DNA from: a virus
Direction: 5' to 3' (one strand)
DNA: 30,111 nucleotides
IMG/VR virus record: IMGVR_UViG_3300017746_000087
Coordinates: 1-30,111 of that record
Position 1 is the first letter of the stretch; each line of letters begins with the position of its first letter. A program made the position numbers and the translations under genes. A model generated the notes under the pieces. The model worked only from the letters and a program-made list of their open reading frames with translations. It was not told the origin of the DNA and did not search any database. Below, piece by piece: positions 1 to 22,332 of the stretch.

Positions 1-2415
1 GTTTTGACCAAAGTTGACTGTATATGTATGAACTACTACAGAACTACCATCCGCAAGTGTTAAGAATAAAGGAAATTGTGCCTCTGTATAAGTGTCTATT
101 GTTCCCTGAGAAACTCCGTTCTTATACATCACAACTGTTCCATCAGAATCAATGGAAATACCAATAACATGATATGTTTGTCCTGCCCATCCAGCACCAT
201 AATTAGTTGAAGTGCCGGAGTCATAAACAGCACCGCCAAAATGATATGATAATCCATTAGTGTTAGTACCTGGATAATGTCCTATACCCCCACCAGCTAC
301 ACCAATTCCAATCATCTCATCTTTGTAATTTCTTGTCTCCCAATACCACTTACCTGAGGTAAATGCCATATTTGCTTGAACAACTTTATCATTAATTGAA
401 GATTGGGCAAATAAGTTTCCATCTGAGTAAGAAACTCCATCAGTATGAAAAGGAAATAGAGGATTCAAAGTAGCAAAGTTATTCTTACAAGTATCATCAG
501 TTGTTCTCCAACTCTCAATACCTACTGGTGTGTAAGGTTTGGGAACATCAAAACCACCTTTGTATTTTGCTACACCTTTGTAAATACGAAGGTCTTGTAT
601 GGAACCAATTATCCTATTTGCAGTTGACCATAGTCCAATATTCAATTTATCTACGGGAGTAAATATTGATTGTGTTCCAAGATCCGTATTAATACCAACA
701 CAAACACCATTAACATATCCCAGTAAGTTACTACCATCTCTCACCATAGCATAATGAACCCATTCATCGGTTGGCAAAGTAAGACCAGAAACGTTTATGG
801 CAATTTGATTGCCGGAAGTACCATTAAAAGACACGTAAAATCTTGGTAAGCCACTACTGTTTTGATAAACTAACCAAGATCTTTCATCATTAGCACTATC
901 CCATATACCTACTCCACCTGATCCAGCAAAACTTGTAGCACTCTGCCAATACTCAACTGTAAAATCTCCAGATCCAAAAGCAAAGTCTGAATTGATTGGT
1001 GTACTTATATAATCTCCAACTGATGCAAGATGTATAGCACTTCCATAATAATTACCAAGTTCATAACCCACACCAGCATTACCATTTGCTGTAAGTGTCT
1101 TATTAGTTCCACTACCTTTGATATCAGCAGAGTATTCTCTTACTGCATTTGCTAATTTGAGAGAAACATTATCAAAATATGCAGTTCCAGTATTTCCTGC
1201 AGAAGTCATCAATCTAATATAAACAGAAGTGTTTGTATCACTGGCAAAGTTAACTGCATAAGTACCACTACCAGAAACATCTAAAGATACTAAAGTTGCA
1301 GAATTGGCAGAATTTCTTACTTGTAATCTAACCCCACCTGCAGTTCCTAAATCAACATCTACCTCTAATGTGTAATTTGTACTTGCAGATACAGAAACTC
1401 CAGAACTAGTTTCTGCACCATCAAAGTCAGTAGAAGCATCTATTGCTAATCTTTGATATAAACTATCCCAAGTTGGAGTAGAATTGTATCCAGTCCAACC
1501 AGTGATATTACTAGTAAAAGTTCCATTAGTAAATAATTCTGTATTGGTATTTTCTAATGCAATACCAGGAACAGCAAGAACTAAGTTAGCAGCATAAGAG
1601 TCACTTCTCAACTGACTAACATAAGCATCAGAAGTTGTAGGAGCACCATTGCGTGGTTGTGGTAAGTCTTCACCTTTCAGTGTAATAATACTATTAGGGT
1701 CACAATGGAAGTCAGCACCAGAATTAGAACTATCATTCATAGGAAGATAGAATCCATTGACTCCAAATCCACCACTATTATTGATTACATTCTTGATGAC
1801 TGATGGTGATTTAGGAACCCATTGTCCTGGTCTGAAATCAGTTGCTTCTGTAGTTCCAGAAGACATATAACCGTCTCCATCTTTATAGAAACCAAACACA
1901 TCTGGTTCAAGTGCTTGACCGTCTACGTAGAAGTAATCAAATAGTTGTGATTTAGTTGAGGTAGAAAGAGTTGAACTGTTATTGGGTCTTTGAGCTCCAA
2001 TTAAAGACCTGACTAATGTCGATACCGAAGTGTTATAATTTACATCATAATCTACTAAAGTAGACGAGTCAAAATTTGTAATCAAAGCACCATTTAAATA
2101 TAATTTACATCTACTTTTTTCATCACCAAGAGTTGTATTGACCGCAACCATAACATGATACCATCCACCATTATCTCGCTGCAATCTATCACTATCATTT
2201 ATTAGTTCACTAGTACCACTATTTTGATCTATTAGTCTTATTGCATTATCTGATCGTAGCTGTATGCCAAATTGTTGAGAACCATCAGAGTCAGCTCTTT
2301 GTTGAAAAAGATAATCAGTTTCGGTACTACTATTTTTCTTTACCCATAATGCAAAAGTAAATACCTTACGATTACCAGTGCTGGTAGGAGTTCTCTTTAA
2401 AAGTTCGTTTGCCAT
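1..2415 (-). CDS. Lectin-like virion protein, LamG-CBM-LamG-SPRY (3' end outside window)
   Basis: The reading frame is open from ATG at 2415 to the left edge (805 codons, no stop), so the C-terminus is missing. Read directly: a first concanavalin/LamG-like domain at about residues 19-250 (FTFALWV..., WYHVMVAVN, LYLNGA, GFYLPM); a carbohydrate-binding-module-like jelly roll at about 288-420 (ELFTNGTFTSNITGW ... AYFDNVSLK); a second LamG at about 475-600 (DFTVEYWQ, WVHYAMVRDG, GYVNGV); and a SPRY-like domain from about 685 to the edge (GKWYWETRNY, IGIGVAG, YHVIGISID, VVMYKNG, and NFGQ at the edge). These folds bind glycans or proteins, so a host-surface adhesin or virion decoration role is inferred. 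It starts 10 nt after the stop of the gene at 2426-3223, with GAGGTAAGG as ribosome binding site, so it is probably co-transcribed and translationally coupled from the late promoter at 3241. Confidence 0.85.
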   Translation of the reverse strand, partial: MANELLKRTPTSTGNRKVFTFALWVKKNSSTETDYLFQQRADSDGSQQFGIQLRSDNAIRLIDQNSGTSELINDSDRLQRDNGGWYHVMVAVNTTLGDEKSRCKLYLNGALITNFDSSTLVDYDVNYNTSVSTLVRSLIGAQRPNNSSTLSTSTKSQLFDYFYVDGQALEPDVFGFYKDGDGYMSSGTTEATDFRPGQWVPKSPSVIKNVINNSGGFGVNGFYLPMNDSSNSGADFHCDPNSIITLKGEDLPQPRNGAPTTSDAYVSQLRSDSYAANLVLAVPGIALENTNTELFTNGTFTSNITGWTGYNSTPTWDSLYQRLAIDASTDFDGAETSSGVSVSASTNYTLEVDVDLGTAGGVRLQVRNSANSATLVSLDVSGSGTYAVNFASDTNTSVYIRLMTSAGNTGTAYFDNVSLKLANAVREYSADIKGSGTNKTLTANGNAGVGYELGNYYGSAIHLASVGDYISTPINSDFAFGSGDFTVEYWQSATSFAGSGGVGIWDSANDERSWLVYQNSSGLPRFYVSFNGTSGNQIAINVSGLTLPTDEWVHYAMVRDGSNLLGYVNGVCVGINTDLGTQSIFTPVDKLNIGLWSTANRIIGSIQDLRIYKGVAKYKGGFDVPKPYTPVGIESWRTTDDTCKNNFATLNPLFPFHTDGVSYSDGNLFAQSSINDKVVQANMAFTSGKWYWETRNYKDEMIGIGVAGGGIGHYPGTNTNGLSYHFGGAVYDSGTSTNYGAGWAGQTYHVIGISIDSDGTVVMYKNGVSQGTIDTYTEAQFPLFLTLADGSSVVVHTYTVNFGQN

Positions 2416-2425
2416 TATCCTTACC

Positions 2426-3223
2426 TCAACCTAAGATAGTAGAACCTGATGGGAAATAATCAGAGATTATCTCCACCCAATTTGTGCCATTATAGACTTC
2501 TAACGCAGAACTAGTAGAGTTCCACCTAATGTATCCACCATATGCTGTTGATGGTCTCTGAGCAGTAGTACCAACAGGTAGAGCAACTGCATCAGTCCTT
2601 TTCGATATATCTAATGATACTGCTGGAGAGGTAAGAGTCCCAATACCAAGATTACCCTTCTCTGGGGAAACATGTGTATCACCACTGTTCAAATCAATGA
2701 ACATTGCAGGATATTCACCTGTTTCACCTTCAGATCTACCTTTTACAGTAAAACAAGAAAAATCTCCAGTTGAAGGAGAACCGCCTGAAGGTCGGGTATC
2801 AATTCTATATAAACCACCAACTCTGCTAGTGCTAATTCCACTTATTTGGGTAATATTATTTCCAATTGTGAAAATTTTACCATCTAATTCCGTAAATATA
2901 GCAGAACCAGTGGTTGATCCTACTGCAGTGAGTACCACTCCACCATCAGTACTAACCGGATAAAAACCACCTGAAATATCACCAATTTCTATATTAACAT
3001 CGGTATTTCCTAGTGAAATATTACTAGAGGTGATGGTGGTGATACCAACTAAAGAAGAACCAACACTAATACGCTCACTAATATCTAAATTAGTGAATGA
3101 ATAAGTATCGGTCGATGTTATAGTTTCTGCACTGATACTGGTAGCAGAAACCACACCAACATTCAAGTCTGTTGGTGGCCCAACTGCGGTGGTAAAACCA
3201 GCTAAATTACTTGCCCTTGACAT
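2426..3223 (-). CDS. Tail-fibre/structural protein, 265 aa
   Basis: Its N-terminus MSRASNLAGF is nearly the same as that of the 449-aa gene at 6428-7777 (MSRARNLAGF), which suggests a shared virion-attachment segment. The middle is made of the V-G-V-x-S-A-T and GITTITSS beta repeats common in marine phage fibres, and LGIGTLTSPAVSLDIS is a diverged VGIGT-x-P module. The C-terminus (AQRPSTAYGGYIRWNSTSSALEV.. then YNGTNWVEI) is a short beta hairpin motif often seen at the ends of phage fibre segments. A late promoter (TATAAATA, 3241-3248) lies just upstream and no clear Shine-Dalgarno is present. The lectin-like gene follows after 10 nt and probably shares its transcript. A structural role is inferred from composition and context. 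Confidence 0.85.
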   Translation of the reverse strand: MSRASNLAGFTTAVGPPTDLNVGVVSATSISAETITSTDTYSFTNLDISERISVGSSLVGITTITSSNISLGNTDVNIEIGDISGGFYPVSTDGGVVLTAVGSTTGSAIFTELDGKIFTIGNNITQISGISTSRVGGLYRIDTRPSGGSPSTGDFSCFTVKGRSEGETGEYPAMFIDLNSGDTHVSPEKGNLGIGTLTSPAVSLDISKRTDAVALPVGTTAQRPSTAYGGYIRWNSTSSALEVYNGTNWVEIISDYFPSGSTILG

Positions 3224-3240
3224 ATCGGTGTATTTTTAGT

Positions 3241-3248
3241 TATTTATA
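3241..3248 (-). promoter_or_regulatory. T4-type late promoter (TATAAATA)
   Basis: This is an exact T4 late-promoter octamer on the minus strand, 17 nt before the ATG at 3223. It is followed by ACTAAAAATA, close to the leader shared by the other fibre genes here. It would drive 2426-3223 and, by coupling, the lectin-like gene. Confidence 0.8.
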
Positions 3249-3272
3249 GTTCAGGTATTAAGTGGTTTGGGA

Positions 3273-3305
3273 TTATTCTTCGAACAAAATAGATTTAGTG
3301 GCCAT
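3273..3305 (-). pseudogene. Mini-ORF, possible remnant of a deleted structural gene start
   Basis: A 10-residue ORF (MATKSILFEE) lies in the 100-nt gap between the 362-aa and 265-aa genes. An AATAAATT sequence, one base off the late-promoter variant used here, sits just upstream on the same strand. It could be what is left of a promoter plus gene start after deletion or module exchange. It could also be chance, because a 10-codon ORF carries little weight. Confidence 0.2.
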
Positions 3306-3323
3306 TACGGGCTTAATTTATTA

Positions 3324-4412
3324 TTAAACAAAATATGTTATTTGTGCATTGTAATTCCTTGCAGTTACAAAAATTGCATTGTCTCCATTAACAACACCAT
3401 CCATAGAATTAATGGCAACGTTAGCATTACCAGCAGTAACTTGGGCAACAAAGATGTCACCATAAGCAGTTGATTCTCTACATACACCAGCATGATGAAA
3501 TGCACTACTACTGTTAAATGGAAGACCATTAAATGCAGCACTGGCATTGTTTGAACCAATTGCACTAAATTTAACTTGAAAATGAACAGAAACTAAATTA
3601 CCTATTTTTGTGTAATACCCACTAGTAGTTGATAAAGTATATCCTGATGATGTGATATTTGGAGTCCAAGTACCTTCTTCATAATCATCTAGAAGTTCAG
3701 AGGTCATTCCTGATGCATCACCAGTGGCAGAGAAGTCAACACCACCACCATCTGGAAGTTTTATAACTCCAGACCTAGTAAATCTTACGCATTCAGAGCC
3801 ACCAGTTCCATCATCTTGTCTGGTTCTAAACACCATCTCTGCATTATTGGAAGGATTACCCCCAACAATAATTTCCCATGTCCTTGCATTTGCGTTAGAA
3901 TTATTAGCATCTATTCTAATTGCACAATCACTATTTTGTGAAATTTGAAGGGCTTTAGTTGGATTATCAGTTCCGACACCAACATTACCTTGTTTTAAAA
4001 CTAGATTATTAGTATAATATGTACCTGCATATCTAGTAAAAAATTCAAGAGTATTATTGGTAGTATTTAATCGCATACTACCATTATATGCTGTGTTTGT
4101 AGACGATACTCTAATATTAGGGTCACTAGATCCAACTGCTTTTATTGATCCAACTACTGTTAGTTCTTCATCTGGATTATCAGTTCCGATGCCAACCAGA
4201 CCAGTAGAAGTTATACGAAGTCTCTCAACATCATTAGTACCTAGTGCTAATGTATTAGTAGCTGGACTACTAATAGAAGTACCAGAACCAACATTCAATG
4301 CACCAGATACGGTACTCACACCTGCTAGAATGGTACCCCCACCAATAGTCGTCTGAATTGACGGAGTAGAAGCATCTAAATGCTCAATATTATTAGTCTT
4401 GAGGGTACTCAT
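3324..4412 (-). CDS. Tail-fibre protein with DYEEGTWTP head, 362 aa
   Basis: The N-terminal part contains IEHLDASTPSIQTTIGGGT and beta repeats. Two VGIGT-type modules follow (RLRITSTGLVGIGTDNPDEE at about 67-86, and VGVGTDNPTKALQIS), as found in many phage fibre shafts. From about residue 242 comes the LLDDYEEGTWTP motif with a following G-YYTKIGNLV segment, known as a C-terminal head in phage fibres. The 395-aa gene at 7854-9041 carries a related head. Its own late promoter lies 18 nt upstream and there is no clear Shine-Dalgarno. It is inferred to be a fibre or receptor-binding protein; the receptor is unknown. Confidence 0.87.
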   Translation of the reverse strand: MSTLKTNNIEHLDASTPSIQTTIGGGTILAGVSTVSGALNVGSGTSISSPATNTLALGTNDVERLRITSTGLVGIGTDNPDEELTVVGSIKAVGSSDPNIRVSSTNTAYNGSMRLNTTNNTLEFFTRYAGTYYTNNLVLKQGNVGVGTDNPTKALQISQNSDCAIRIDANNSNANARTWEIIVGGNPSNNAEMVFRTRQDDGTGGSECVRFTRSGVIKLPDGGGVDFSATGDASGMTSELLDDYEEGTWTPNITSSGYTLSTTSGYYTKIGNLVSVHFQVKFSAIGSNNASAAFNGLPFNSSSAFHHAGVCRESTAYGDIFVAQVTAGNANVAINSMDGVVNGDNAIFVTARNYNAQITYFV

Positions 4413-4430
4413 GTCTATCTACTTTTTAGG

Positions 4431-4438
4431 TATTTATT
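4431..4438 (-). promoter_or_regulatory. Late promoter variant (AATAAATA) with shared leader
   Basis: AATAAATA is followed by CCTAAAAAGTA, nearly identical to the promoter-leader block found before several other fibre genes here. It precedes the ATG at 4412. Confidence 0.7.
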
Positions 4439-4442
4439 GAAC

Positions 4443-4730
4443 TTATACGGCTGGTTTGTTTGCAATCAGATATGCTTTGTAAGCATCCTTGACTCCTTGT
4501 GTCCATGCAGCATTACAAATTGCTTGAACATCTGCATCTTCACCACTGATATCTGTGTCAACAAAGTTGTCACTATCATCAATAGTACCACATGACAGTG
4601 CATGTCTGTGGAAAGAACGTGCAACTTCTACACCATCCTTCTCGATAACTTCTGCTCTACGTACTTGTACAGCTTTATATGTTCCAACGACTTCAATCTT
4701 GTCGTTTTCAAATCTTTCAGTAAGTGCCAT
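4443..4730 (-). CDS. Conserved-looking small protein, 95 aa, function unknown
   Basis: This is a soluble, charged protein (MALTERFENDKIEVVG, VQVRRAEVIEKDGVEVARSF, HRHALSCG, then an acidic DDSDNFVDTDISGEDADVQ stretch). From memory, proteins of this pattern occur beside fibre genes in marine T4-like phages, but I cannot name a function. It has a strong ribosome binding site (GGAGG, 4740-4744) and its own late promoter at 4769-4776, unlike most fibre genes here, which lack a Shine-Dalgarno. It lies between an S74 fibre gene (upstream) and the DYEEGT fibre gene (downstream). A fibre assembly factor or minor virion protein is possible by context only. Confidence 0.85.
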   Translation of the reverse strand: MALTERFENDKIEVVGTYKAVQVRRAEVIEKDGVEVARSFHRHALSCGTIDDSDNFVDTDISGEDADVQAICNAAWTQGVKDAYKAYLIANKPAV

Positions 4731-4739
4731 TAGGAAAAT

Positions 4740-4744
4740 CCTCC
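4740..4744 (-). promoter_or_regulatory. Strong ribosome binding site GGAGG
   Basis: GGAGG lies 9 nt before the ATG of the 95-aa gene. It is one of the few strong Shine-Dalgarno sequences directly behind a late promoter in this window, suggesting higher translation of this small protein. Confidence 0.7.
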
Positions 4745-4768
4745 GAATTAAACAGGTTTAGGCGTAAG

Positions 4769-4776
4769 TATTTATT
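4769..4776 (-). promoter_or_regulatory. Late promoter variant (AATAAATA)
   Basis: AATAAATA begins one base after the TGA stop (4778-4780) of the S74 fibre gene and about 38 nt before the 95-aa gene. Its leader differs from the common ACTAAAAAGTA block. Confidence 0.7.
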
Positions 4777-4777
4777 A

Positions 4778-6403
4778 TCAACCTTCAAGTGCAGACAATC
4801 GTGCCTCAAGGGAGGTGTTTTGTGTTTCAAGGGTTTCGATCTTTGAAAATGCATCCTTCAATGCCTCAACCAAAACAGGAATAATCCCCGTCTTCTCTAT
4901 GGATTTAGACCACTCAGATTGCGTATCATCTTTATATGCATCACTATAATCATCAACAATTTCTCCTTGCCCATAACCTTGTACAGTTGCTGCAGTCGAA
5001 ACTCGATTAATACCCATGGTTTGATGAACAAGATTTGGTATTACAGTTTCTACCTCTTGAGCAATAAATCCATACTTTGTATCAGTCCCCATTTTTGCTT
5101 CTTCTTTCCAGGTAAAAGTCCTTCCCTGAAGTCCCTTAATAATAGTTACTGCATCACTTGCACTAATATCTTGTATATTTTCTTTTAATCTACCATCAGA
5201 AATATCAGCACTAGAACTACCGGTAAAGTTTCCAGTAGAAGCATTAATGGTCAAGCGAACAGTATCGTTGCCAGCGGTAAAATATAGATCACCGGTACTA
5301 CCGTTGTGAATAATTCTTTGACCAATTCTCATCCCCCGGTTTTCCCAGTTCATAAACTGAGAAGTAGCATTATGACTTCTTATAATGAGACTAGCGTTAG
5401 ATCCCGAGTTAGTAACTGCTTGAGTATTTTCAATTTTTAGATAACCAGTGGAATCATTTTGAGTGAATGCACCTTGAACATGAAGCTTTGTATCAATATT
5501 TCCGAGAGTTCCCAGACCCATGTTGCCATTCTCATTGATTCGCAGCCGCTCGGCTGCAGCCCCTGTTGATGCTGACGTATAGAAAGTCATCAGTGATGAA
5601 CCATATGTCGCCGTTAATCGACACTCCCTATCAGTTTCGCCAAGCGTTACACGTAATCCACCATAATGGCTTGCAACTTGATTATTAAGATCAAATATAT
5701 TTTTTCCACCCACCCTTTCACTTTTGACCATTAAAGGCATGGTAGGACCTACCTCTCCAATCCCTATATTGCCCGAGTCGTCGATGCGCATCCGCTCGCT
5801 ATTTGCTGTAGAAAATGACATAAAGCCACTTTCTCTTAAATACAGCAACGTATTTAAACCGTTTTGAATAATGTTAAAACCGTTAGACGCACCATTGCTG
5901 CCAGTAGTGCTGTTAGTTAGTCCTAAGTGAGTTACTGTTGCTCCTGACGAATGGATTTCTAGCGAATTTCTGCCAGTGCCAAAGTTGGAAGGCGCTACTC
6001 CAAGCGCAACCCTGCCCGAGCTGTCGAGGCGCATTCTTTCTGCATTATTCCCATTATCAAAAAATATAAGAGCATTAGAGCCATTGTTATGATAAAGACT
6101 ATACTTATTAGTTCCCTGAGTTGCCCAACGAACTGCAGAATCTCCATTACTATCAACCTTTATTGCACCACCTGAACCATAAACATGTAGAGTCTCACTT
6201 GGAGCTGTAGTTCCAATACCAACATCACCAGTACTATCTTCAATCATTGAAGAGTAAGTTACAATCCCAGCGGTTCCACTGTTCTTATAGAACTGATTAG
6301 CAGCACCATTATTACCTGGCAGGGTAATAGTATTATCACCTGCGACTGCTGGTGCATTGATATCAATCGCACCAGATGTAGTTCCTCTTAAACTCAGACC
6401 CAT
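4778..6403 (-). CDS. Tail fibre with C-terminal Peptidase_S74 chaperone, 541 aa
   Basis: The shaft contains several VGIGT modules (DVGIGTTAPSETLHVYG, ERMRLDSSGRVALG, ERMRIDDSGNIGIG, ERLRINENGNMGLG). The last 140 residues are an intramolecular chaperone of the endosialidase/S74 type: SDGRLKENI at 402-410 supplies the Ser402...Lys407 dyad, followed by FTWKEEA, YGFIAQEVETVIP and a C-terminal coiled coil (IETLETQNTSLEARLSALEG). In this family the chaperone trimerises the fibre and then cuts itself off before the serine, so a mature fibre of about 401 residues is predicted. Its promoter at 6422 overlaps the stop of the upstream gene. The 533-aa gene at 9384-10985 has a diverged second copy of this domain. 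Confidence 0.93.
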   Translation of the reverse strand: MGLSLRGTTSGAIDINAPAVAGDNTITLPGNNGAANQFYKNSGTAGIVTYSSMIEDSTGDVGIGTTAPSETLHVYGSGGAIKVDSNGDSAVRWATQGTNKYSLYHNNGSNALIFFDNGNNAERMRLDSSGRVALGVAPSNFGTGRNSLEIHSSGATVTHLGLTNSTTGSNGASNGFNIIQNGLNTLLYLRESGFMSFSTANSERMRIDDSGNIGIGEVGPTMPLMVKSERVGGKNIFDLNNQVASHYGGLRVTLGETDRECRLTATYGSSLMTFYTSASTGAAAERLRINENGNMGLGTLGNIDTKLHVQGAFTQNDSTGYLKIENTQAVTNSGSNASLIIRSHNATSQFMNWENRGMRIGQRIIHNGSTGDLYFTAGNDTVRLTINASTGNFTGSSSADISDGRLKENIQDISASDAVTIIKGLQGRTFTWKEEAKMGTDTKYGFIAQEVETVIPNLVHQTMGINRVSTAATVQGYGQGEIVDDYSDAYKDDTQSEWSKSIEKTGIIPVLVEALKDAFSKIETLETQNTSLEARLSALEG

Positions 6404-6421
6404 GGTTTTATACTTTTTAGT

Positions 6422-6429
6422 TATTTATC
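6422..6429 (-). promoter_or_regulatory. Late promoter variant (GATAAATA) overlapping a stop codon
   Basis: TGATAAATA joins the TGA stop of the 449-aa gene (6428-6430) to the promoter of the 541-aa gene. It is followed by the shared ACTAAAAAGTA leader. Confidence 0.7.
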
Positions 6430-7777
6430 AGGCAGTAGATGAAGCCGTTAATATATGCTGTGAAGTAGGTACAGCATTCTGTACAATGACCTCATAGAAG
6501 AATGCTACTCCACTATCACCAGTTGGGTTAGTAATATCAATACTATATCCAAAACCACCTGAATTATTGAATGCGTAACTGGAAGTTGAATATGTGTATG
6601 CAAATGGTGTAGTTACTGATGCACTATCAGATGATGTACCACTACTATTTGTAAAGACCCTACACATAAACTGTGCTGCTACATGATTACTACCTGTATT
6701 AGATGCTGTCCAAGAACCAGTAGCATTAATCGTAATCATTGCAGAAGTTCTATCAGTTCCAGTGAAAGTAAATCTAGTCAATTGACCAGAGTCTAATGTA
6801 TCACTTACATAATACTTTCTAATTGTGCCGTTTGCAATGTTCTCGTAGTTATATACTGTATTTGCTGATGGACTACTGTCACCCAACAATAGAGTATTAC
6901 CAACACCTACTTGAATCTGACCACCAGAAGTTATACGAAGTCTTTCTGTATTGGTAGTTTTAAAACTAATGGGTCCAGCATTTACATTATTTAAGACTAA
7001 ATCGTTGCCACTTATACCATAATATATTTCAGCATCAGTAGTCCCATCTAAAGCAGAATATCTTATCGATGGATACGAACTACCTCTTAAAGCAATATTT
7101 GGACTACCAGAATCTACAATGTCTAATTTAACTGTAGGATTATCAGTTCCAATACCTAAACCAGTGCTTGTAACTCTTAATTGTTCAGACCCACTATTAG
7201 TAAATGCTAACTCACCAGCAGAAGGGAAGAATACTCCAGTGGTTGTATCAACACCAACTATACCAGGAGTTCCTTCAGTTCCATAACCAACTGATACTGC
7301 TGTACCAACAGGTACTGCAAGACCATAAGGTACATAAGCAGCACCAGTTCCTTTCTTATTTGTATAATTATCTGCTCTGACTTTGCTATTACCACCCGAA
7401 AGAATACCGGGCATATCAACATATGTACCAATACCTAAAATATCAGGAATAAAAGTATCACCATCACCAACAATCAAGTCAGCGTCACCTTGCATTACAA
7501 TATCAGTGTATTGTGTATATGCAGCTGATGCAGATTCTGGTGGGTCTACAGTAATCGTAGATGCAATCGAAAGATTAGCATTCGTATAATATATCTTATT
7601 CAGTGGACTAGAAAGATCTTCTGCCAGAGCAGTACCAAGACCACCTGGAGTTCCAGTCAACTCGGAACCATCACCACGGTATGAGATTGCCGTTAAATAT
7701 CCTACTCGAATATTAACTGGATTTTCTACATTAGTGACGGCAGAACCAAAACCTGCAAGATTACGAGCTCTTGACAT
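6428..7777 (-). CDS. Tail-fibre/structural protein, 449 aa
   Basis: The N-terminus MSRARNLAGFGSAV is shared with the 265-aa gene at 2426-3223. It carries a GDGSELTG module (35-42), found as a variant in at least three other proteins of this window, and a shaft segment LRVTSTGLGIGTDNPTVKL followed by ERLRITSGGQIQVG. The last roughly 110 residues (TRFTFTGTDRTSAMITINATG ... FGYSIDITNPTGDSG) form a beta-rich head that I cannot classify. It has its own late promoter at 7795. A fibre or receptor-binding role is inferred. Confidence 0.87.
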   Translation of the reverse strand: MSRARNLAGFGSAVTNVENPVNIRVGYLTAISYRGDGSELTGTPGGLGTALAEDLSSPLNKIYYTNANLSIASTITVDPPESASAAYTQYTDIVMQGDADLIVGDGDTFIPDILGIGTYVDMPGILSGGNSKVRADNYTNKKGTGAAYVPYGLAVPVGTAVSVGYGTEGTPGIVGVDTTTGVFFPSAGELAFTNSGSEQLRVTSTGLGIGTDNPTVKLDIVDSGSPNIALRGSSYPSIRYSALDGTTDAEIYYGISGNDLVLNNVNAGPISFKTTNTERLRITSGGQIQVGVGNTLLLGDSSPSANTVYNYENIANGTIRKYYVSDTLDSGQLTRFTFTGTDRTSAMITINATGSWTASNTGSNHVAAQFMCRVFTNSSGTSSDSASVTTPFAYTYSTSSYAFNNSGGFGYSIDITNPTGDSGVAFFYEVIVQNAVPTSQHILTASSTA

Positions 7778-7794
7778 TTTATCTACTTTTTAGT

Positions 7795-7802
7795 TATTTA
7801 TC
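7795..7802 (-). promoter_or_regulatory. Late promoter variant (GATAAATA) with shared leader
   Basis: GATAAATA is followed by ACTAAAAAGTAGATAAA and then the ATG at 7777. The leader has no Shine-Dalgarno. Confidence 0.7.
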
Positions 7803-7822
7803 AGGATCCTTTAAGTTAAGAA

Positions 7823-7838
7823 ACTACCGACTGGTAGT
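7823..7838 (-). terminator. Weak hairpin, possible terminator
   Basis: ACTACC and GGTAGT form a 6-bp stem with a 4-nt loop, followed on the minus strand by TTTCTT. It lies between the stop of the 395-aa gene and the next late promoter. The stem is short and the T tract is broken, so this is a candidate only. Confidence 0.3.
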
Positions 7839-7853
7839 GATAGGTTTAAATAG

Positions 7854-9041
7854 TTAAGAGTCAGTAAAATAATGACCACCGAAAGTGAGCACAAGGTGTG
7901 TTTGAGAATTTGTTGTTATATTGTTTTCGTCAATAACGTAATCACCTGTACTGTCATTAGAGTATAGATATACTCCAGCACTGTTTGCCACAAAGCCAAC
8001 AGAGAGTCCATAAGTAGTCTCTGCTCCCGCCATTGATCTTGTATGAAATACTGGTAACGCACCATTATGATTTGGAACAAAAGGTAATGTTGCTTTAGTA
8101 GTATTATCTGAGGTTTTTACTATAGCTACTGCGGCACCGCTGGCAGATCCTGTGTTTGCAGTGTATATATAGCCACTAATGTAAACACAACGCCCTATCT
8201 TTGTATATTGAATTTCTGTAGTACTATTATTGGAGCCATCAGTAGATCCAGTTTTTGCAAGTCTCCAATCAGTGATAGTACCTTCTTCATAATCATCAAG
8301 AGCATTTGCAGTAGCGGTGTCACCATTGAAAGCAATACCACCACCAGAAAGGAGACGAAGTTCTTCTGTTGCAGAAGCATTACCTCCATTGGTGTAGAAA
8401 ATCAAGTCGCCAGTATTGGCTGCTGTTCTTTGGACACCTAATTGCACTAAATCTTCATCTGCATCATGATCCGTATAAGATATAAACCCATAATCATTGT
8501 TTGACCGCATACTTATGTTAAGGCCAAATGCTCCAGTTGAAGATGATATAAGTTGGAGGGGAGCAGAAGCAGATTTAGTACCAACAGATGTTTGATTTAT
8601 AAGTACTTGTCCACCTGAAGTTATAGTAAGTTTATCTCCACCTATAAGATTATTGACATCAGGAATTCCATATCCAAAATCAAGTTCTCCATCATTTCTA
8701 ACAGAAATTCCCCAATAATTAGTTGTCGAGTCATTCTTATTCTGCATTAGCAGATGACTGAATCTATTAACTCGAAATCTTCCCTCACTTTGATTAAGAT
8801 CTAAACCATTTAGTGGATTAGTAGTTCCGATACCAACCGATCCACCAGTAACATGAATGCCACCCTGGGCGGTGATGATACCAACTGAATCTATATTAGT
8901 TACATCTTCATACGACAAAGTACCGCCAATGGATACATTACCACTGAAAGTTGATACACCAGTGACTGTCAGTCCTCTAGGACAGTCTGGAGCACCATTG
9001 TCAAAGTGATTGACGATTTCATTGACTTGTATTTTTGACAT
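7854..9041 (-). CDS. Tail-fibre protein with DYEEGT head, 395 aa
   Basis: The N-terminus MSKIQVNEIVNHFDNGAPDC has the form phage fibres often use for virion anchoring. Next come GLTVTGVSTFSGNVSIGGTL, SYEDVTNIDSVGIITA (nearly the same block as in the 558-aa protein at 12292-13968) and VGIGTTNPLNGLDL. From about residue 248, LDDYEEGT followed by QYTKIGRCVYISGYI marks a head of the same type as in the 362-aa gene, but the rest of the head has diverged. It has its own late promoter at 9058. It is probably a receptor-binding fibre; the receptor is unknown. Confidence 0.88.
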   Translation of the reverse strand: MSKIQVNEIVNHFDNGAPDCPRGLTVTGVSTFSGNVSIGGTLSYEDVTNIDSVGIITAQGGIHVTGGSVGIGTTNPLNGLDLNQSEGRFRVNRFSHLLMQNKNDSTTNYWGISVRNDGELDFGYGIPDVNNLIGGDKLTITSGGQVLINQTSVGTKSASAPLQLISSSTGAFGLNISMRSNNDYGFISYTDHDADEDLVQLGVQRTAANTGDLIFYTNGGNASATEELRLLSGGGIAFNGDTATANALDDYEEGTITDWRLAKTGSTDGSNNSTTEIQYTKIGRCVYISGYIYTANTGSASGAAVAIVKTSDNTTKATLPFVPNHNGALPVFHTRSMAGAETTYGLSVGFVANSAGVYLYSNDSTGDYVIDENNITTNSQTHLVLTFGGHYFTDS

Positions 9042-9057
9042 CTCAATACTTTTTAGT

Positions 9058-9065
9058 TATTTATT
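9058..9065 (-). promoter_or_regulatory. Late promoter variant (AATAAATA) with shared leader
   Basis: AATAAATA is followed by ACTAAAAAGTATTGAG and the ATG at 9041. It sits 4 bases after the stop of the 100-aa gene. Confidence 0.7.
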
Positions 9066-9069
9066 ATGC

Positions 9070-9372
9070 TCACCAAGGTAACTCAGTAATCCTGGTCTTA
9101 TTTTCTTTTTTTGAAATCTCTGTATCTAAGAAATCAATAATTTTTTGTTCTTTTTCTGACCCCAATCTCTCCTTTACCCAAGTTATAACTTGGGCTTCGG
9201 TCAGAGAAGAAAATGGTAATGGACTTGCTGCAGGAGGTACTTTCACATACCTTTCAGTACTTGTACTTAATTCTCCTTTAGTTGCGGAAACTTTATACTC
9301 AATATTCCACACCATGCCATCAGATGTGCGTCTTACTAGATTTAAAATGTGCCAAGTGTAATTAGTAGTCAT
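9070..9372 (-). CDS. Small fibre-associated protein, 100 aa
   Basis: The protein starts MTTNYTWHILNLVRR, has a VWNIEYKVSATKGE beta segment, and ends in a helical part with LTEAQVITWVKERLG. This N-terminal TW-I-L and C-terminal LTEAQVI-WV pattern recurs, from memory, in small proteins encoded next to phage fibre genes; I cannot assign a function with certainty. Its ribosome binding site GAGGAG overlaps the stop codon of the S74 fibre gene at 9384-10985 and there is no promoter in between, so the two are translationally coupled. That coupling makes a fibre assembly or accessory role plausible. Confidence 0.88.
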   Translation of the reverse strand: MTTNYTWHILNLVRRTSDGMVWNIEYKVSATKGELSTSTERYVKVPPAASPLPFSSLTEAQVITWVKERLGSEKEQKIIDFLDTEISKKENKTRITELPW

Positions 9373-9383
9373 GCTTTTTCTCC

Positions 9384-10985
9384 TCAGTTAGATTCTAATG
9401 TCGAGATTCTTTGTCTTAAAGAATCATTATCTGCTTTTAATTGTTTAATTGCAATCAACATTTCACATAGTACAGCTCTATCTGAAATGCCATCCACTAC
9501 TTCAACACCTTCATCTAAATCTTCACCATTTTTAGTAACAGGAGTTGTACCATTTCCGACCATATAGCTTGGTTCATCACCATATCCCAACTCACTTCCT
9601 GCATCCCACTCCGAATAAGATACTGCCTCAGTAAAACCAATATCGTGAAGTTCTTCTGCAATCAGACCAACAATTTGTTCACCGGTTGTATGATCTGCCC
9701 AGGTTTTGGGAGTAATATTCTCAATTCTTGTTAGACCAATACCAACATAATTTGTAATATTATCCTTATATCTTCTAGATGAAGTTGATCTTTGAAGTTC
9801 GTAAGCTGTACCAGAACCAGTAATTCTTAACAGATTTGTTGTTGAGGAACTGGTAGTATCGTAAATGAGTTTTGATTTGACTCCCACCCCATCGGTACCA
9901 CTTATACCGAAATTTGTGGCCCCCGCGTCTTCATAATTAATAGTAATTCCACCTGTACCATTCGCAAGACTGAGTGCATGATTCGTGTTACTATTATTAA
10001 TACTATAGTCTCCAGGGCTGTCGTTAATAATATTAAGTGCATCGCTATCACCAAGAAATCTGGTAATTTTATTAGTAGAACCGTAAGAAGTTTTACCTTG
10101 TATCTCTAGAAAAGCATCATTTCCAGTGTTAGTATTTCTTACTAATTCTAAAGTTCCATTAGCATCTTGAATACTTAAAGTTCCCCAAGTGGTACCTGTG
10201 GCCTGATTATTTGAATCAGTGCAATTGTAATTAAACTCTGCGTAACCCCTACCTGAAGCATTGTTATCAGCATTATATGCAACATTCTGACCACTACAGT
10301 TAAAATTAAACCAAGAAGTGTCAGGACCACCAGAAAAATATGAGTCATTACCTGCTCCATCCCCAAGATGTAGTATAGTAACACCATCAATTTTCATATC
10401 AATAGAACTAACAGATGCTTGATTGAAATGATCTGCAGAAATTGTTAAACCATCTGAACCAGAACCTATTCCAATAAAGTTAGTTCTACCCGTACTAGTT
10501 GTATTTACAAATTGAATCGTAGCCTGATCACCTTCTCCATAATCTTTAGATGAAAAAGTTTCAGTTCCTGCAATACAAACAGATGCTCCAGTTGCAAAAT
10601 CGCCACCAGTACCAGTATCTGAATTGAAAAATGTAGTATGAATACCAATTGATACTTTTTCTGAATCAATATTGACTCCACCTACTCTGAATCCTAATAG
10701 AAAATCATCACCTTGTTCACCTAATATATCACCCTCCATAATGAATCTACCTCCAACAGGAGAGGTAGTATTCATTCTCAGTCTTGAGGTACCACCCTGA
10801 ATGTCCTGAAATCTTATGTTTGGTCCCCCACTTCGGATGTGAAGTTGTCCCTCTGGTACCGAGGTTCCTATACCAACAGAACCACCAGTAACATTCAACC
10901 CATTCGTCGCGGTAGTCACACCCGTCAGCACTGGTCCGTGAGTACCAGTCCTACCTGTAATAGAATTTACATTAATTGCTGACAT
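9384..10985 (-). CDS. Tail fibre with C-terminal Peptidase_S74 chaperone, 533 aa
   Basis: The N-terminus MSAINVNSITGRTGTHGP is followed by LTGVTTATNGLNVTGG and SVGIGTSVPEGQLHIRSGG shaft modules, then a long beta-rich middle. The C-terminal 132 residues start at SSRRYKDNI (Ser402...Lys407, the dyad spacing of the S74 family) and continue with TWADHTTGEQIVGLIAEEL and a coiled coil (MLIAIKQLKADNDSLRQRIS). Self-cleavage before Ser402 is predicted. This S74 copy is clearly different from that of the 541-aa gene (SSRRYK versus SDGRLK). Its late promoter at 11005 overlaps the stop of the upstream gene, and the small 100-aa gene is coupled downstream. Confidence 0.92.
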   Translation of the reverse strand: MSAINVNSITGRTGTHGPVLTGVTTATNGLNVTGGSVGIGTSVPEGQLHIRSGGPNIRFQDIQGGTSRLRMNTTSPVGGRFIMEGDILGEQGDDFLLGFRVGGVNIDSEKVSIGIHTTFFNSDTGTGGDFATGASVCIAGTETFSSKDYGEGDQATIQFVNTTSTGRTNFIGIGSGSDGLTISADHFNQASVSSIDMKIDGVTILHLGDGAGNDSYFSGGPDTSWFNFNCSGQNVAYNADNNASGRGYAEFNYNCTDSNNQATGTTWGTLSIQDANGTLELVRNTNTGNDAFLEIQGKTSYGSTNKITRFLGDSDALNIINDSPGDYSINNSNTNHALSLANGTGGITINYEDAGATNFGISGTDGVGVKSKLIYDTTSSSTTNLLRITGSGTAYELQRSTSSRRYKDNITNYVGIGLTRIENITPKTWADHTTGEQIVGLIAEELHDIGFTEAVSYSEWDAGSELGYGDEPSYMVGNGTTPVTKNGEDLDEGVEVVDGISDRAVLCEMLIAIKQLKADNDSLRQRISTLESN

Positions 10986-19172: not shown

Positions 19173-19184
19173 ATGATATATCAT
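19173..19184. promoter_or_regulatory. Perfect 12-bp palindrome at a start codon
   Basis: ATGATATATCAT is its own reverse complement and runs into the ATG at 19183. It could be a binding site for a dimeric regulator, or chance in AT-rich DNA. Confidence 0.3.
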
Positions 19185-19503
19185 GAAAAAAGGCGAATTC
19201 TGTCCGTTAATTCAAAAGAAATGTGTTGAACATAAATGTGCCTGGTATACATGTGTAAGAGGAACAAATCCTAATACTGGGGAAGAGATTGATGATTGGC
19301 GTTGTGCCGTATCATGGATGCCTATGATGACAGTAGAAATCGCACAAAAGTCAAATCAAACTGGAGCTGCTGTAGAAAGTTTCAGAAATGAAGTAGTAGA
19401 AGCAAATCATCAAAACCAACAACTTTATGCTCATGCCCTTCAACAGGGAATTAATGTTGCTCAAATAACTCCCCTGAACCCCCCTATGATTGGAGGTGAG
19501 TAA
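19183..19503 (+). CDS. Cysteine-rich protein, 106 aa, function unknown
   Basis: The only convincing plus-strand gene. Cysteines at residues 7, 14, 19, 24 and 41, with His17, lie in the first 41 residues (CPLIQKKC, HKCAWYTC, DDWRC), a spacing that suggests a zinc or iron-sulfur site. The second half (QTGAAVESFRNEVVEANHQN) is helical and ends in a Pro-rich tail. From memory, similar proteins occur in several marine phage genomes without known function. It has its own late promoter back to back with that of the 1595-aa gene. Its stop lies 6 nt from the stop of the convergent 940-aa gene. The upstream frame is closed by a TGA, which fixes the start at 19183. No good Shine-Dalgarno is visible. Confidence 0.88.
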   Translation: MKKGEFCPLIQKKCVEHKCAWYTCVRGTNPNTGEEIDDWRCAVSWMPMMTVEIAQKSNQTGAAVESFRNEVVEANHQNQQLYAHALQQGINVAQITPLNPPMIGGE

Positions 19504-19509
19504 GAATAT

Positions 19510-22332
19510 TTAGTCCTTTCTACAGACGATAATATCGATGTACTGAACACGGAAGTCCATGTTATTTACATTTCCTGCACTACCAACAGTAATTGTATGT
19601 TGGTGGTCTGCGTTTTGAGCATTGATACTAAGGTTGTGACTATGAGTTGCGTTTGCTGCATTCGTACTAACACTATGACTATGTGCGGCATCACCAGTCT
19701 GCACATTCGGGTTTGAATAACCAACATCTTGTTTGTTATAACCGATATTAGTAATGGCTTCTTTTCCACCATCAGAGTCAAAGTCTCCTTTGCTCCAGTT
19801 GATACCTGAAAGGAATCTACCGTTTGCACCACCTTGATTAATTCCATGATTATGAGGTACATTTTGGTAAGCTGCATTTCCATTGTGACTATGATTTGCG
19901 TTAGCATTTACAGCTTCTCCACCATGGGTATGATTGGCGGATTGGTCTCCAGCATTTGCATTATGATTATGAGTAGGTACTGGAACAGACCTTTCAGAAA
20001 ATGCACTGGTGAAAGTATTAGTACCACCAGAACCACCACCAGAACCAGAAACAACACGCAATGTTTTGTTATTATCATTAGTTAGTTTTGTCCAACCATT
20101 TGGTGCAGCTGCCTGATAGAACAACATTTTTGAACCAGGAGGAATAAGATTTCCTACTGCATCGTATAGTTTCTTAAACGCCCCAACACTTGGAGGTTGA
20201 ACAGTTGAAGTACTTGTCGGTGGATATGCATTCTTAACTATAACTGCACCTTGAATCGCAGTTGTTGCAGAAGGAAGTCTTGCAGGAGAAATCGTACCCG
20301 TAGTAATCTTATCGCCAGCAAGATTAGTAAGACCTGCACCATTACCGGTAAAGTTTCCTACAGTCAGTCGATTAGTACTTGGATTATATTTAAATTGTCC
20401 ACTACCAGAATCAATATATGGTCTTTGATAACCAGCAGCCTGATTGGTACTGAATAATACTTGATAGTCTAAATTAGAACCCGTTTCATCTACATTGATG
20501 AAATCAGCTCGATTTGAAATACCAGAAAAACTGCTACCAGTAATAGTTGTCGTTTCGATATTTTGAACACTGAATGTTCTAGTAGATGGATTGTATGCAA
20601 GTTGGTTTGAACCACTATCAATATAAGGTCTCTGATATCCAGCAGCCTGATTAGTACTGAACAGTATCTGGAAGTTAGTATTAGTATTAATTTCATCTAC
20701 ATTGATAAAATCAGCATTCAACGAAACACCAGTCAGATTACCAGTTACATCACCAACCAAATCACCAACAATGTTTGAAACGGAGAATGTATTTGTTGAT
20801 GGGTTATAGGTTAGTTCATTACTTTGAGTATCAATATAAGGTCTTTGGAAACCACCACCTTGATTGACACTAAACAATACTTGATGATTAGTGTTTTGAC
20901 TATTGGTGTCTACATTAATAAAGTTCGCGTTTGTTGCAATACCAAAGAGATTACCAATGATATTTTCAACAGTAAGAGTTTCTGTAGATGGATTATATGT
21001 TAGATGACTATTATTAGTGTCAATATACATCCTCTTATAATCAGTTGCACCTTGTTCACTAAAGATGACCTGAAAATCGGTATTGGTGTTTATCTCATCT
21101 ACATTAATGTTATCTGCACCAGTAGCAATACCAGATACATTACCTACAAATCTAGTACAAGATAGTACATTTGTAGAAGGAACATATGTTAATTGATTGG
21201 TGTCTGAGTCAATTAGGTGAAGTGGGTAGTTTGAACCCAGACCCACATTATTAACAAAAGAAACCTGATGTGTAGCACTACTACTTGTAGTCTGAACACT
21301 AACTCTATCTGCACCAGTAGAAACACCAATAATAGCAGTCTGGTCCTGTCTGACGGTAACAATACCAGCACTTACACTAAAATTATTACTCTTGATGTTG
21401 TTAATTGTACCGATACCCGATACATAGATGTTCTCAAAGTCTGCATAACCATTACTATCTAATCTTTCTCTGACTGTTGCAACACCAACATCAATCTGTT
21501 TACCATTATTATTCAGATAGATTGTTGCTCCCATACCGGCAACATTAGATGCCTGGTAGAAAAGTTTATTTGGAGCATTAAATGGAACTCTAATGGTTAG
21601 AATACCAACCTGAGTACCATTACCATCTACACCATTACTGTAGATATTATCTAAGTCTGCGGTAGGTGCAGTCTTAATATAGAATGGGAAACCACCAGAA
21701 TCTACATGGAATTCATACTTATTACCTCTAATTAAGTAAAGTTCTGGGTCATCGGTATTTTGAGTAAAACCAATACCGGGAGGGTCACCTGCAGTTAAGA
21801 ACCTAAATGTATCACTATTAACTTCTTCTAATGTAAATTTGGTGAATATTTCTGCATCATTTGCGACTAAATTATTGTCTACAGTTACATTCGTAAACCC
21901 AACTGTTCCACCAGCAGAAATTTGACCTGTTAAAGATGTTCCTTTGATATTACCAGTAACTGTCAGGTCACCATAAACATACTCTGCAGTCTGACCAATC
22001 GAAACTGGTCCGATAACATCGAGAGTATATGCAGGGATTGCAGAATTGATACCAACTTTTTTGGTAAGAGTAGAACTCGTAAATACTGTCCCACCAACAC
22101 CTACATCAAGACCAATATTAGATGTAGATACACCAGTAGTTACAAGTCTTTGTGCACTAATAGTAGTACCAACAGCTAGTTGTTTACTGACCTCAGTATC
22201 ACCAATAATTACAAGTTTCTTGTCTGGTGTTGTAGTTCCAATACCAATTTTGTCACTATTGGCATCAGCATAGATTAAATTTTCATTGACTTGAATGCCA
22301 TTTCTTATGACAAAATCCTTATCTACTGCCAT
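19510..22332 (-). CDS. Long fibre protein with HxH metal-binding tip, 940 aa
   Basis: Domains in order: an N-terminal shaft with IGIGTTTPDKKLVIIGD; a cupredoxin-like beta-sandwich at about 165-273 (DPELYLIRGNKYEFHVDSGG, FPFYIK, IRVPFNAPNKLFYQASNVAG); five tandem repeats of about 65 residues at 341-673 (DFINVDE ... QRPYIDSGSNQ ... YNPST); a tail-collar-like segment at 731-750 (PPGSKMLFYQAAAPNGWTKL); and a C-terminal tip with seven HxH motifs at 788, 801, 814, 827, 884, 897 and 910. In T4 the gp37 receptor-binding tip uses HxH motifs to hold iron ions in a trimeric needle, and gp12 has a related arrangement, so this is very likely a receptor-binding fibre. Its late promoter at 22362 overlaps the stop of the 1629-aa gene. 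Confidence 0.93.
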   Translation of the reverse strand: MAVDKDFVIRNGIQVNENLIYADANSDKIGIGTTTPDKKLVIIGDTEVSKQLAVGTTISAQRLVTTGVSTSNIGLDVGVGGTVFTSSTLTKKVGINSAIPAYTLDVIGPVSIGQTAEYVYGDLTVTGNIKGTSLTGQISAGGTVGFTNVTVDNNLVANDAEIFTKFTLEEVNSDTFRFLTAGDPPGIGFTQNTDDPELYLIRGNKYEFHVDSGGFPFYIKTAPTADLDNIYSNGVDGNGTQVGILTIRVPFNAPNKLFYQASNVAGMGATIYLNNNGKQIDVGVATVRERLDSNGYADFENIYVSGIGTINNIKSNNFSVSAGIVTVRQDQTAIIGVSTGADRVSVQTTSSSATHQVSFVNNVGLGSNYPLHLIDSDTNQLTYVPSTNVLSCTRFVGNVSGIATGADNINVDEINTNTDFQVIFSEQGATDYKRMYIDTNNSHLTYNPSTETLTVENIIGNLFGIATNANFINVDTNSQNTNHQVLFSVNQGGGFQRPYIDTQSNELTYNPSTNTFSVSNIVGDLVGDVTGNLTGVSLNADFINVDEINTNTNFQILFSTNQAAGYQRPYIDSGSNQLAYNPSTRTFSVQNIETTTITGSSFSGISNRADFINVDETGSNLDYQVLFSTNQAAGYQRPYIDSGSGQFKYNPSTNRLTVGNFTGNGAGLTNLAGDKITTGTISPARLPSATTAIQGAVIVKNAYPPTSTSTVQPPSVGAFKKLYDAVGNLIPPGSKMLFYQAAAPNGWTKLTNDNNKTLRVVSGSGGGSGGTNTFTSAFSERSVPVPTHNHNANAGDQSANHTHGGEAVNANANHSHNGNAAYQNVPHNHGINQGGANGRFLSGINWSKGDFDSDGGKEAITNIGYNKQDVGYSNPNVQTGDAAHSHSVSTNAANATHSHNLSINAQNADHQHTITVGSAGNVNNMDFRVQYIDIIVCRKD
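19597..19971 (-). other. HxH fibre-tip region with 13-residue periodicity
   Basis: Codons for residues 788-912 of the 940-aa fibre. Four HxH motifs are spaced exactly 13 residues apart, then comes a 57-residue step, then three more at exactly 13. Each is a likely metal-binding layer in a trimer. Confidence 0.85.
20314..21312 (-). repeat. Five tandem repeats of about 65 residues in the 940-aa fibre
   Basis: Units start near residues 341, 406, 469, 540 and 609. Their shared core is AD-INVDE, then FQVLFS, PYIDSGSNQL-YNPST, and a G-x-x-SGI or TG end. Units four and five are the most alike (LFSTNQAAGYQRPYIDSGS is identical), which suggests recent duplication. Confidence 0.88.

What the first reader, a model, noticed from the sequence alone, without database searches (positions are those of the whole stretch)
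19597..19971. Seven HxH motifs on an exact 13-residue ruler
The HxH histidines start at residues 788, 801, 814, 827 and then 884, 897, 910: every step inside each cluster is exactly 13. Seven is also the number of iron ions reported for the T4 gp37 tip. Exact periodicity suggests a metal-stapled needle in two blocks, separated by a 57-residue step that could form the receptor-binding loop (about residues 830-883).
Basis: partly seen in the sequence, partly recalled or inferred. Interest (0 to 1): 0.7.

Follow-up and report, generated by a model that had tools for sequence, protein, structure and literature searches.

The report
Metal-stapled tip of phage tail fibre
The evenly spaced histidine pairs are most likely the iron-clamped needle at the tip of a cyanophage tail fibre, built like the known T4 tip, and the gene for a small unnamed four-cysteine protein sits beside such tips almost every time.

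Summary
Observation confirmed: the only seven HxH motifs of the 940-aa fibre (window 19510-22332, minus strand) start at 788, 801, 814, 827 | 884, 897, 910, and shuffles never reproduce this. The window is a cyanomyovirus fragment. The element is best read as a T4 gp37-like tip: collar-like domain, four descending rungs, ~54-residue variable head, three ascending rungs, terminal strand. T4 gp37 also has seven, but split 3+4 and irregular, so exact 13-spacing is not required. Relatives show matched ladders: step 11, 12, 13 or 15 in one block predicts the same step in the other (rho 0.86, N=69), usually n descending and n-1 ascending rungs (7-15 in all). Thus the blocks lie side by side in one needle, not as two stacked blocks. 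T4's published contacts transfer: Ala820/Val888, Ala807/Leu901, Ala794/Ile914 mirror Gly921-Phe970. The head is the most variable part. Nothing here shows metal; the monomer model failed. Unexpected: an unannotated ~100-aa four-cysteine gene (19183-19503) sits beside the tip gene in nearly all relatives, including proteobacterial genomes. In 12-step tips that slot holds fibre-assembly proteins, so it is a candidate tip-assembly factor.

The parts
19510..22332 (-). 940-aa tail fibre gene that carries the ladder
   Evidence: ORF list; homologous tip annotated as tail fiber in Synechococcus phages S-B05, S-B43, RB11-B, RN05-S; no Pfam or PHROG match
20143..22332 (-). shaft, residues 1-730, with ~65-residue imperfect repeats (NxDxQVLFS...YNPST)
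   Evidence: read from the translation
19978..20142 (-). collar-like domain, residues 731-785 (PPGSKMLFYQAAAPNGWTKL...RVVSG), the most conserved part
   Evidence: alignment A2, 85-98% identity between relatives; Pfam Collar not detected in the window, but present at the same place before 12- and 13-step ladders and in T4 gp37
19846..19971 (-). descending ladder, residues 788-829: HxH at 788, 801, 814, 827; small residues at +4/+6 except Ile831 and Gln833 after the last rung
19684..19845 (-). head / candidate receptor-binding insertion, residues 830-883; most variable part
   Evidence: 38-63% identity against 73-79% for the ascending ladder and 85-95% for the collar in pairs with L013-L015; length 56/57 in close relatives, 36-60 elsewhere
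19597..19683 (-). ascending ladder, residues 884-912: HxH at 884, 897, 910; Val/Leu/Ile at +4, Ala at -2
19513..19563 (-). C-terminal strand, residues 924-940 (NMDFRVQYIDIIVCRKD)
   Evidence: conserved at the C-terminus of the whole tip family
19183..19503 (+). 106-aa four-cysteine protein, convergent with the fibre gene (6-bp gap); candidate assembly partner of the tip
   Evidence: found beside the tip in nearly all tip loci and vice versa; Cys7/14/19/41 conserved; no known family or fold

Best explanation
The C-terminal 210 residues form the distal tip of a homotrimeric cyanophage tail fibre that works like the tip of T4 gp37. After a collar-like domain each chain runs outward through four HxH rungs, makes a variable head of about 54 residues, and returns through three HxH rungs to a C-terminal strand at the collar. 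Descending and returning strands lie antiparallel side by side, so the rungs interdigitate (D1-U3-D2-U2-D3-U1-D4-head). At each rung six histidines, two from each chain, would hold one metal ion on the threefold axis, giving seven ions. Small residues of the descending strand make room for large hydrophobic residues of the returning strand between rungs. The head is the likely receptor-contacting part. Shown here: sequence anatomy, coupling of the two ladders across relatives, strand asymmetry, head variability. Inferred: trimer, metal and its identity, receptor binding.
For: Same count and layout as T4 gp37, whose tip is a six-stranded antiparallel needle (PMC9659904) with seven iron atoms (PMC6957217). 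Coupling across relatives: the step of one block predicts the step of the other (11->11 5/6, 12->12 21/26, 13->13 18/21, 14->14 2/4, 15->15 8/12; rho 0.86, N=69, never reached in 10,000 permutations) and n_down-n_up=1 in 52 of 82 non-redundant ladders. Strand signature: position +4 is large hydrophobic in 95% of returning rungs (213/224) and 20% of non-terminal descending rungs (44/224); T4 shows the same. PMC6957217 reports that G921 (descending rung +6) packs on F970 (returning rung +4) and G964 (returning -2) on H929; the same register in the window gives A820/V888, A807/L901, A794/I914 and Ala at every returning -2. Ile831 after the last descending rung matches T4 I933, essential for plaque formation. 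T4 gp37 is a significant sequence relative of the strictly regular 12-step ladders (phmmer 1e-17; one of them hits PDB 2xgf at 5e-13). The head is the fastest-changing part.
Against: The window's own tip has no significant direct match to 2xgf (hhalign 62% over 23 columns). AlphaFold monomer pLDDT is 52, pTM 0.18, and no trimer could be modelled. Whether the step order is mirrored (antiparallel) or repeated (parallel) is undecided by the spacing data: 7 mirror, 4 parallel, 17 ties with all steps >=10, and ladders with shorter steps lean parallel (6 to 0). In relatives chosen by homology alone the count coupling is not significant (rho 0.28). T4's split is 3+4, not 4+3. No metal data.
Confidence: 0.85

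Rival explanations
1. The histidines line the axis and stabilise the trimer without metal (stacked His rings), or bind another metal such as zinc or nickel.
For: Nothing here identifies a metal. PMC6116203 notes that the T4 gp12 HxH site held zinc after reconstitution.
Against: HxH sites solved in T4 gp37, R1/R2 pyocin fibres and P2/phi92 spikes hold iron in octahedral coordination (PMC6116203).
Confidence: 0.1
2. The two blocks are two separate needle segments stacked along the axis with a loop between them.
For: Spacing alone allows it.
Against: Step length and rung number of the two blocks are coupled across relatives and the strands carry complementary small/large signatures that match a known antiparallel contact in T4. 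Stacked segments would not need equal pitch or n/n-1 counts.
Confidence: 0.04
3. The regularity is a by-product of recent tandem duplication of a low-complexity unit, without structural meaning.
For: Some relatives do look like near-perfect repeats (e.g. L160, L080).
Against: Units are 31-67% identical at DNA level here; spacing is kept while other residues diverge; descending and ascending units have different conserved residues.
Confidence: 0.02

Closest known systems
Bacteriophage T4 long tail fibre gp37 tip (PDB 2XGF)
   Same: Seven HxH motifs in two clusters around a head insertion; collar domain before, C-terminal strand after; small/large complementarity of descending and returning rungs; Ile after the last descending rung
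   Different: T4 is 3 descending + 4 returning with irregular steps 32,14,37,14,9,9; the window is 4+3 with exact 13; head 37 against 57 residues; no significant direct sequence match of the window to 2xgf; shaft unrelated
Burkholderia phage E094 gp23 and relatives (PMC8174754)
   Same: Seven HxH motifs at the C-terminus, read by its authors as a T4 gp37-like trimeric tip; assembly protein encoded next to it
   Different: Different phage group; partner is a TfaMu-like chaperone, not the four-cysteine protein. Step length not checked here
Alteromonas phage R22Y gp12 (PMC11705849)
   Same: Six HxH motifs in a marine phage fibre, proposed as iron ligands (Trojan/Ferrojan Horse idea, which names cyanophages)
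   Different: Irregular spacing, motifs in the N-terminal half, iron placed by docking only
Pfam PF07484 Collar + PF03335 Phage_fiber (tail fibre repeat)
   Same: The architecture of many regular ladders found here, and of T4 gp37
   Different: Neither model detects the window's tip
Anabaena phage A-1(L) long tail fibre (PDB 8KEC)
   Same: Best PDB match of the tip profile; HxH-rich C-terminal segment of a cyanophage fibre
   Different: E=0.039, not significant; only a short HxH stretch

Membership tests
T4 gp37-type HxH needle tip | Several HxH motifs near the C-terminus, before and after an insertion | tested here: met
T4 gp37-type HxH needle tip | Antiparallel descending and returning strands with small/large core complementarity | tested here: inconclusive
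   The sequence signature is met (with contacts from PMC6957217); the step-order test is inconclusive and there is no structure
T4 gp37-type HxH needle tip | Significant sequence similarity to gp37 | tested here: inconclusive
   Direct: none, hhalign 62% over 23 columns. Transitive: relatives L045, L051, L080 of the window's tip match the T4 tip at 1e-6 to 5e-5, with composition bias possible
T4 gp37-type HxH needle tip | Trimer with one metal ion per HxH level | not testable with these tools
   Only monomers can be predicted; pLDDT 52
Pfam Collar (PF07484) | Score above the curated cut-off | tested here: not met
   the position and the GW...R-V-V pattern are collar-like only by eye
Kyanoviridae-type cyanomyovirus origin of the window | Synteny and DNA similarity with cyanomyovirus tail-fibre region | tested here: met
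   80 records, all cyanophage, best four 74-77% identity over 26-44% of the query; neighbouring gene matches phrog_529 tail fiber over its full length
Tail fibre assembly chaperones (Tfa, gp38) for the four-cysteine neighbour | Match to a known chaperone family or fold | tested here: not met

The most novel reading that the evidence does not exclude
The four-cysteine protein encoded beside this tip (window 19183-19503) is a dedicated, previously unrecognised assembly factor for HxH needle tips. It takes the gene slot that fibre-assembly proteins hold behind other such tips, and its conserved cysteines may carry or hand over the metal that staples the needle. The metal hand-over is pure speculation; the assembly role rests on linkage and position only.
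Probability: 0.4. Interest if true: 0.7.

Novelty: new member of a known kind. Interest (0 to 1): 0.5.

Why it matters
It places a cyanophage fibre in the T4-tip class and turns an eye-catching ruler into a testable rule: in this class the two HxH ladders share pitch and differ by about one rung, so strand topology, rung order and expected metal count can be read from sequence. The needle appears to be extended in matched pairs (7 to 15 motifs). Marine abundance of such tips bears on the proposal that phage tails hold iron in sea water. The linked four-cysteine gene gives an experimentally accessible candidate for how such tips are folded or loaded, which is open for phages without gp38/Tfa-like chaperones.

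Tried and rejected
AlphaFold of the tip as a monomer with 28 relatives: pLDDT 52, uninformative, not used for fold search. Step-order test for antiparallel against parallel ladders: inconclusive, reported as such. Count coupling in relatives picked by homology alone: not significant. Pfam, PHROGs and NCBIfam on the tip: nothing. First processing of the pattern loci crashed and was redone (then 36 and 45); about half of the pattern hits were His-rich low-complexity or out-of-frame and were dropped. Pfam on downstream genes failed because sequences were cut at 110 aa; repeated at full length with PHROGs. Fold search of the four-cysteine protein: only uncharacterised relatives. The T4 structure paper itself (Bartual 2010) is not held; T4 details come from PMC6957217, PMC9659904 and PMC6116203.

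Full report
OBSERVATION. The fibre gene 19510-22332 (minus strand, 940 aa) contains exactly seven HxH motifs at 788, 801, 814, 827, 884, 897 and 910; steps 13,13,13,57,13,13. Shuffling never produced such a ladder. The 39-bp units are only 31-67% identical to each other. Relatives from IMG/VR at 51-92% identity keep all seven motifs and all five 13-residue steps, with a middle step of 56 or 57. The regularity is therefore real and maintained.

SOURCE. The window is a 30,111-bp virus fragment. Its DNA is closest to Synechococcus phages of the Kyanoviridae type, and it is almost entirely tail-fibre-like genes.

THE T4 YARDSTICK. T4 gp37 read from its genome record has HxH at 883, 915, 929, 966, 980, 989 and 998 in its tip (plus one at 742): seven, split 3+4, with steps 32,14,37,14,9,9. 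Its tip is a six-stranded antiparallel needle with a head (PMC9659904) and seven coordinated iron atoms (PMC6957217). So the count matches, but the exact ruler is not a property of the T4 tip. Relatives of the window's tip also depart from it: 13,12,9|48|13; 13,15,12,9|47|13,15; 15,15,15|46|14,15,17; 17,17|39|17,20,9; 12x6,9|59|12x5.

MATCHED LADDERS. After removing out-of-frame and low-complexity hits, 82 non-redundant proteins have a two-block ladder near the C-terminus. The step of the block not used for finding equals that of the block used in most cases (11: 5/6, 12: 21/26, 13: 18/21, 14: 2/4, 15: 8/12; rho 0.86, N=69; 10,000 permutations never as close). The descending block has exactly one rung more in 52 of 82: 4+3, 5+4, 6+5, 7+6 and 8+7, hence 7, 9, 11, 13 and 15 motifs. 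Two blocks that must share pitch and rung number are best explained as neighbours in one needle. Caveats: dereplication was by shared 4-mers, not by tree; in relatives chosen by homology alone the count coupling was not significant. Whether irregular steps are mirrored or repeated was undecided (7 mirror, 4 parallel, 17 ties among ladders with all steps >=10; ladders with shorter steps lean parallel, 6 to 0), although L185, L187, L470 and L473 are near-exact mirror images.

STRAND SIGNATURE. The residue four places after the first His is large and hydrophobic in 95% of returning rungs and 20% of non-terminal descending rungs; position +6 is hydrophobic in 51% against 7%; the last descending rung is intermediate (61% at +4) (by group). 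T4 shows the same pattern. PMC6957217 reports that T4 G921 packs against F970 of another chain and G964 against H929. In rung coordinates these are descending +6 with returning +4, and returning -2 with the next descending His. This fixes the order descending, returning, descending next to the T4 head. In the window the same register gives A820/V888, A807/L901, A794/I914 and Ala882, Ala895, Ala908 at the returning -2 positions. Ile831 corresponds to T4 I933, whose alanine change abolishes plaques.

HEAD. Residues 830-883 are the most variable part of the tip (38-63% identity in comparisons of the window with L013, L014 and L015, where the collar has 85-95% and the ascending ladder 73-79%). In T4 the corresponding insertion carries the receptor contacts (PMC6957217). 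A receptor-facing role is inferred.

HOMOLOGY. T4's tip matches strictly regular 12-step ladders significantly (PDB 2xgf from the L225 tip at 5e-13). The window itself does not reach significance with 2xgf, and only its own relatives L045, L051 and L080 do so weakly. I therefore file it as working like the T4 tip, with membership by descent likely but not proven.

A LINKED GENE. Next to the fibre, on the other strand with a 6-bp gap, lies a 106-aa gene (19183-19503). Profile or BLAST hits to it were found in about 76 of the 80 tip loci; the five without a profile hit are all short stretches. Conversely, of 100 loci fetched only by similarity to this protein, 20 of them from bacterial and archaeal genomes or MAGs, 95 have an HxH-bearing ORF within 2.5 kb and 87 an ORF with at least two HxH plus the C-terminal strand motif; the same two-part criterion was met by 0 of 5,067 control ORFs. 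The median gap is 12-32 bp. The gene is co-directional in most phages and convergent in cyanophages; it follows the tip in the unrelated Roseobacter podovirus CRP-361 and in P-SSM2. Cys7, 14, 19 and 41 and an AAxESFRNE helix are conserved. No library, PDB entry or fold explains it (model pLDDT 74 with an N-terminal Cys region and a long helix). Behind 12-step ladders the same slot holds tail-fibre assembly proteins (phrog_105 and others), and in the Burkholderia phage with seven HxH a TfaMu-like chaperone (PMC8174754). An assembly role is thus a reasonable inference; metal handling is speculation.

LITERATURE. HxH tips like T4's are known in many phages (PMC8174754, PMC11705849, PMC10579305, PMC11990801). 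I found no paper in the held library that states the matched-ladder rule or describes the four-cysteine partner; the library is open-access only, so absence there proves little.

VERDICT. Real observation; reading partly right; a new member of a known kind, with a general ladder rule and a linked unknown gene as the parts worth following.

Noticed in passing
window 19183-19503 (+): Unannotated 106-aa protein with four conserved Cys, found beside HxH tip genes in phages and in bacterial genomes; candidate tip-assembly factor.
   Followed up: yes
L102:5281-5757 (-), L185, L236, L080: Relatives with far longer ladders (13 to 15 HxH motifs), predicting needles with up to about twice as many metal sites as T4.
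   Followed up: partly
L187, L470, L473, L185: HxH step series that are near-exact mirror images on either side of the head (e.g. 15 13 13 13 17 | 23 | 18 13 13 13 15).
   Followed up: partly
window 4778-6403 (-) and 9384-10985 (-): Fibres ending in a Peptidase_S74 intramolecular chaperone domain (the second just under Pfam's cut-off); another fibre (1-2415) carries a LamG-like domain.
   Followed up: no
L046-L089 type relatives: Tips in which the descending block keeps a single HxH while the ascending block keeps four or five at steps 9, 11, 11, (13), a strongly lopsided arrangement that the matched-ladder rule does not cover.
   Followed up: no
L643 (S-SCSM1) 1-9507: A tip plus four-cysteine gene surrounded by seven 2OG-Fe(II) oxygenase genes; in P-SSM2 (L642) piuC lies two genes downstream of the four-cysteine gene.
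   Followed up: no
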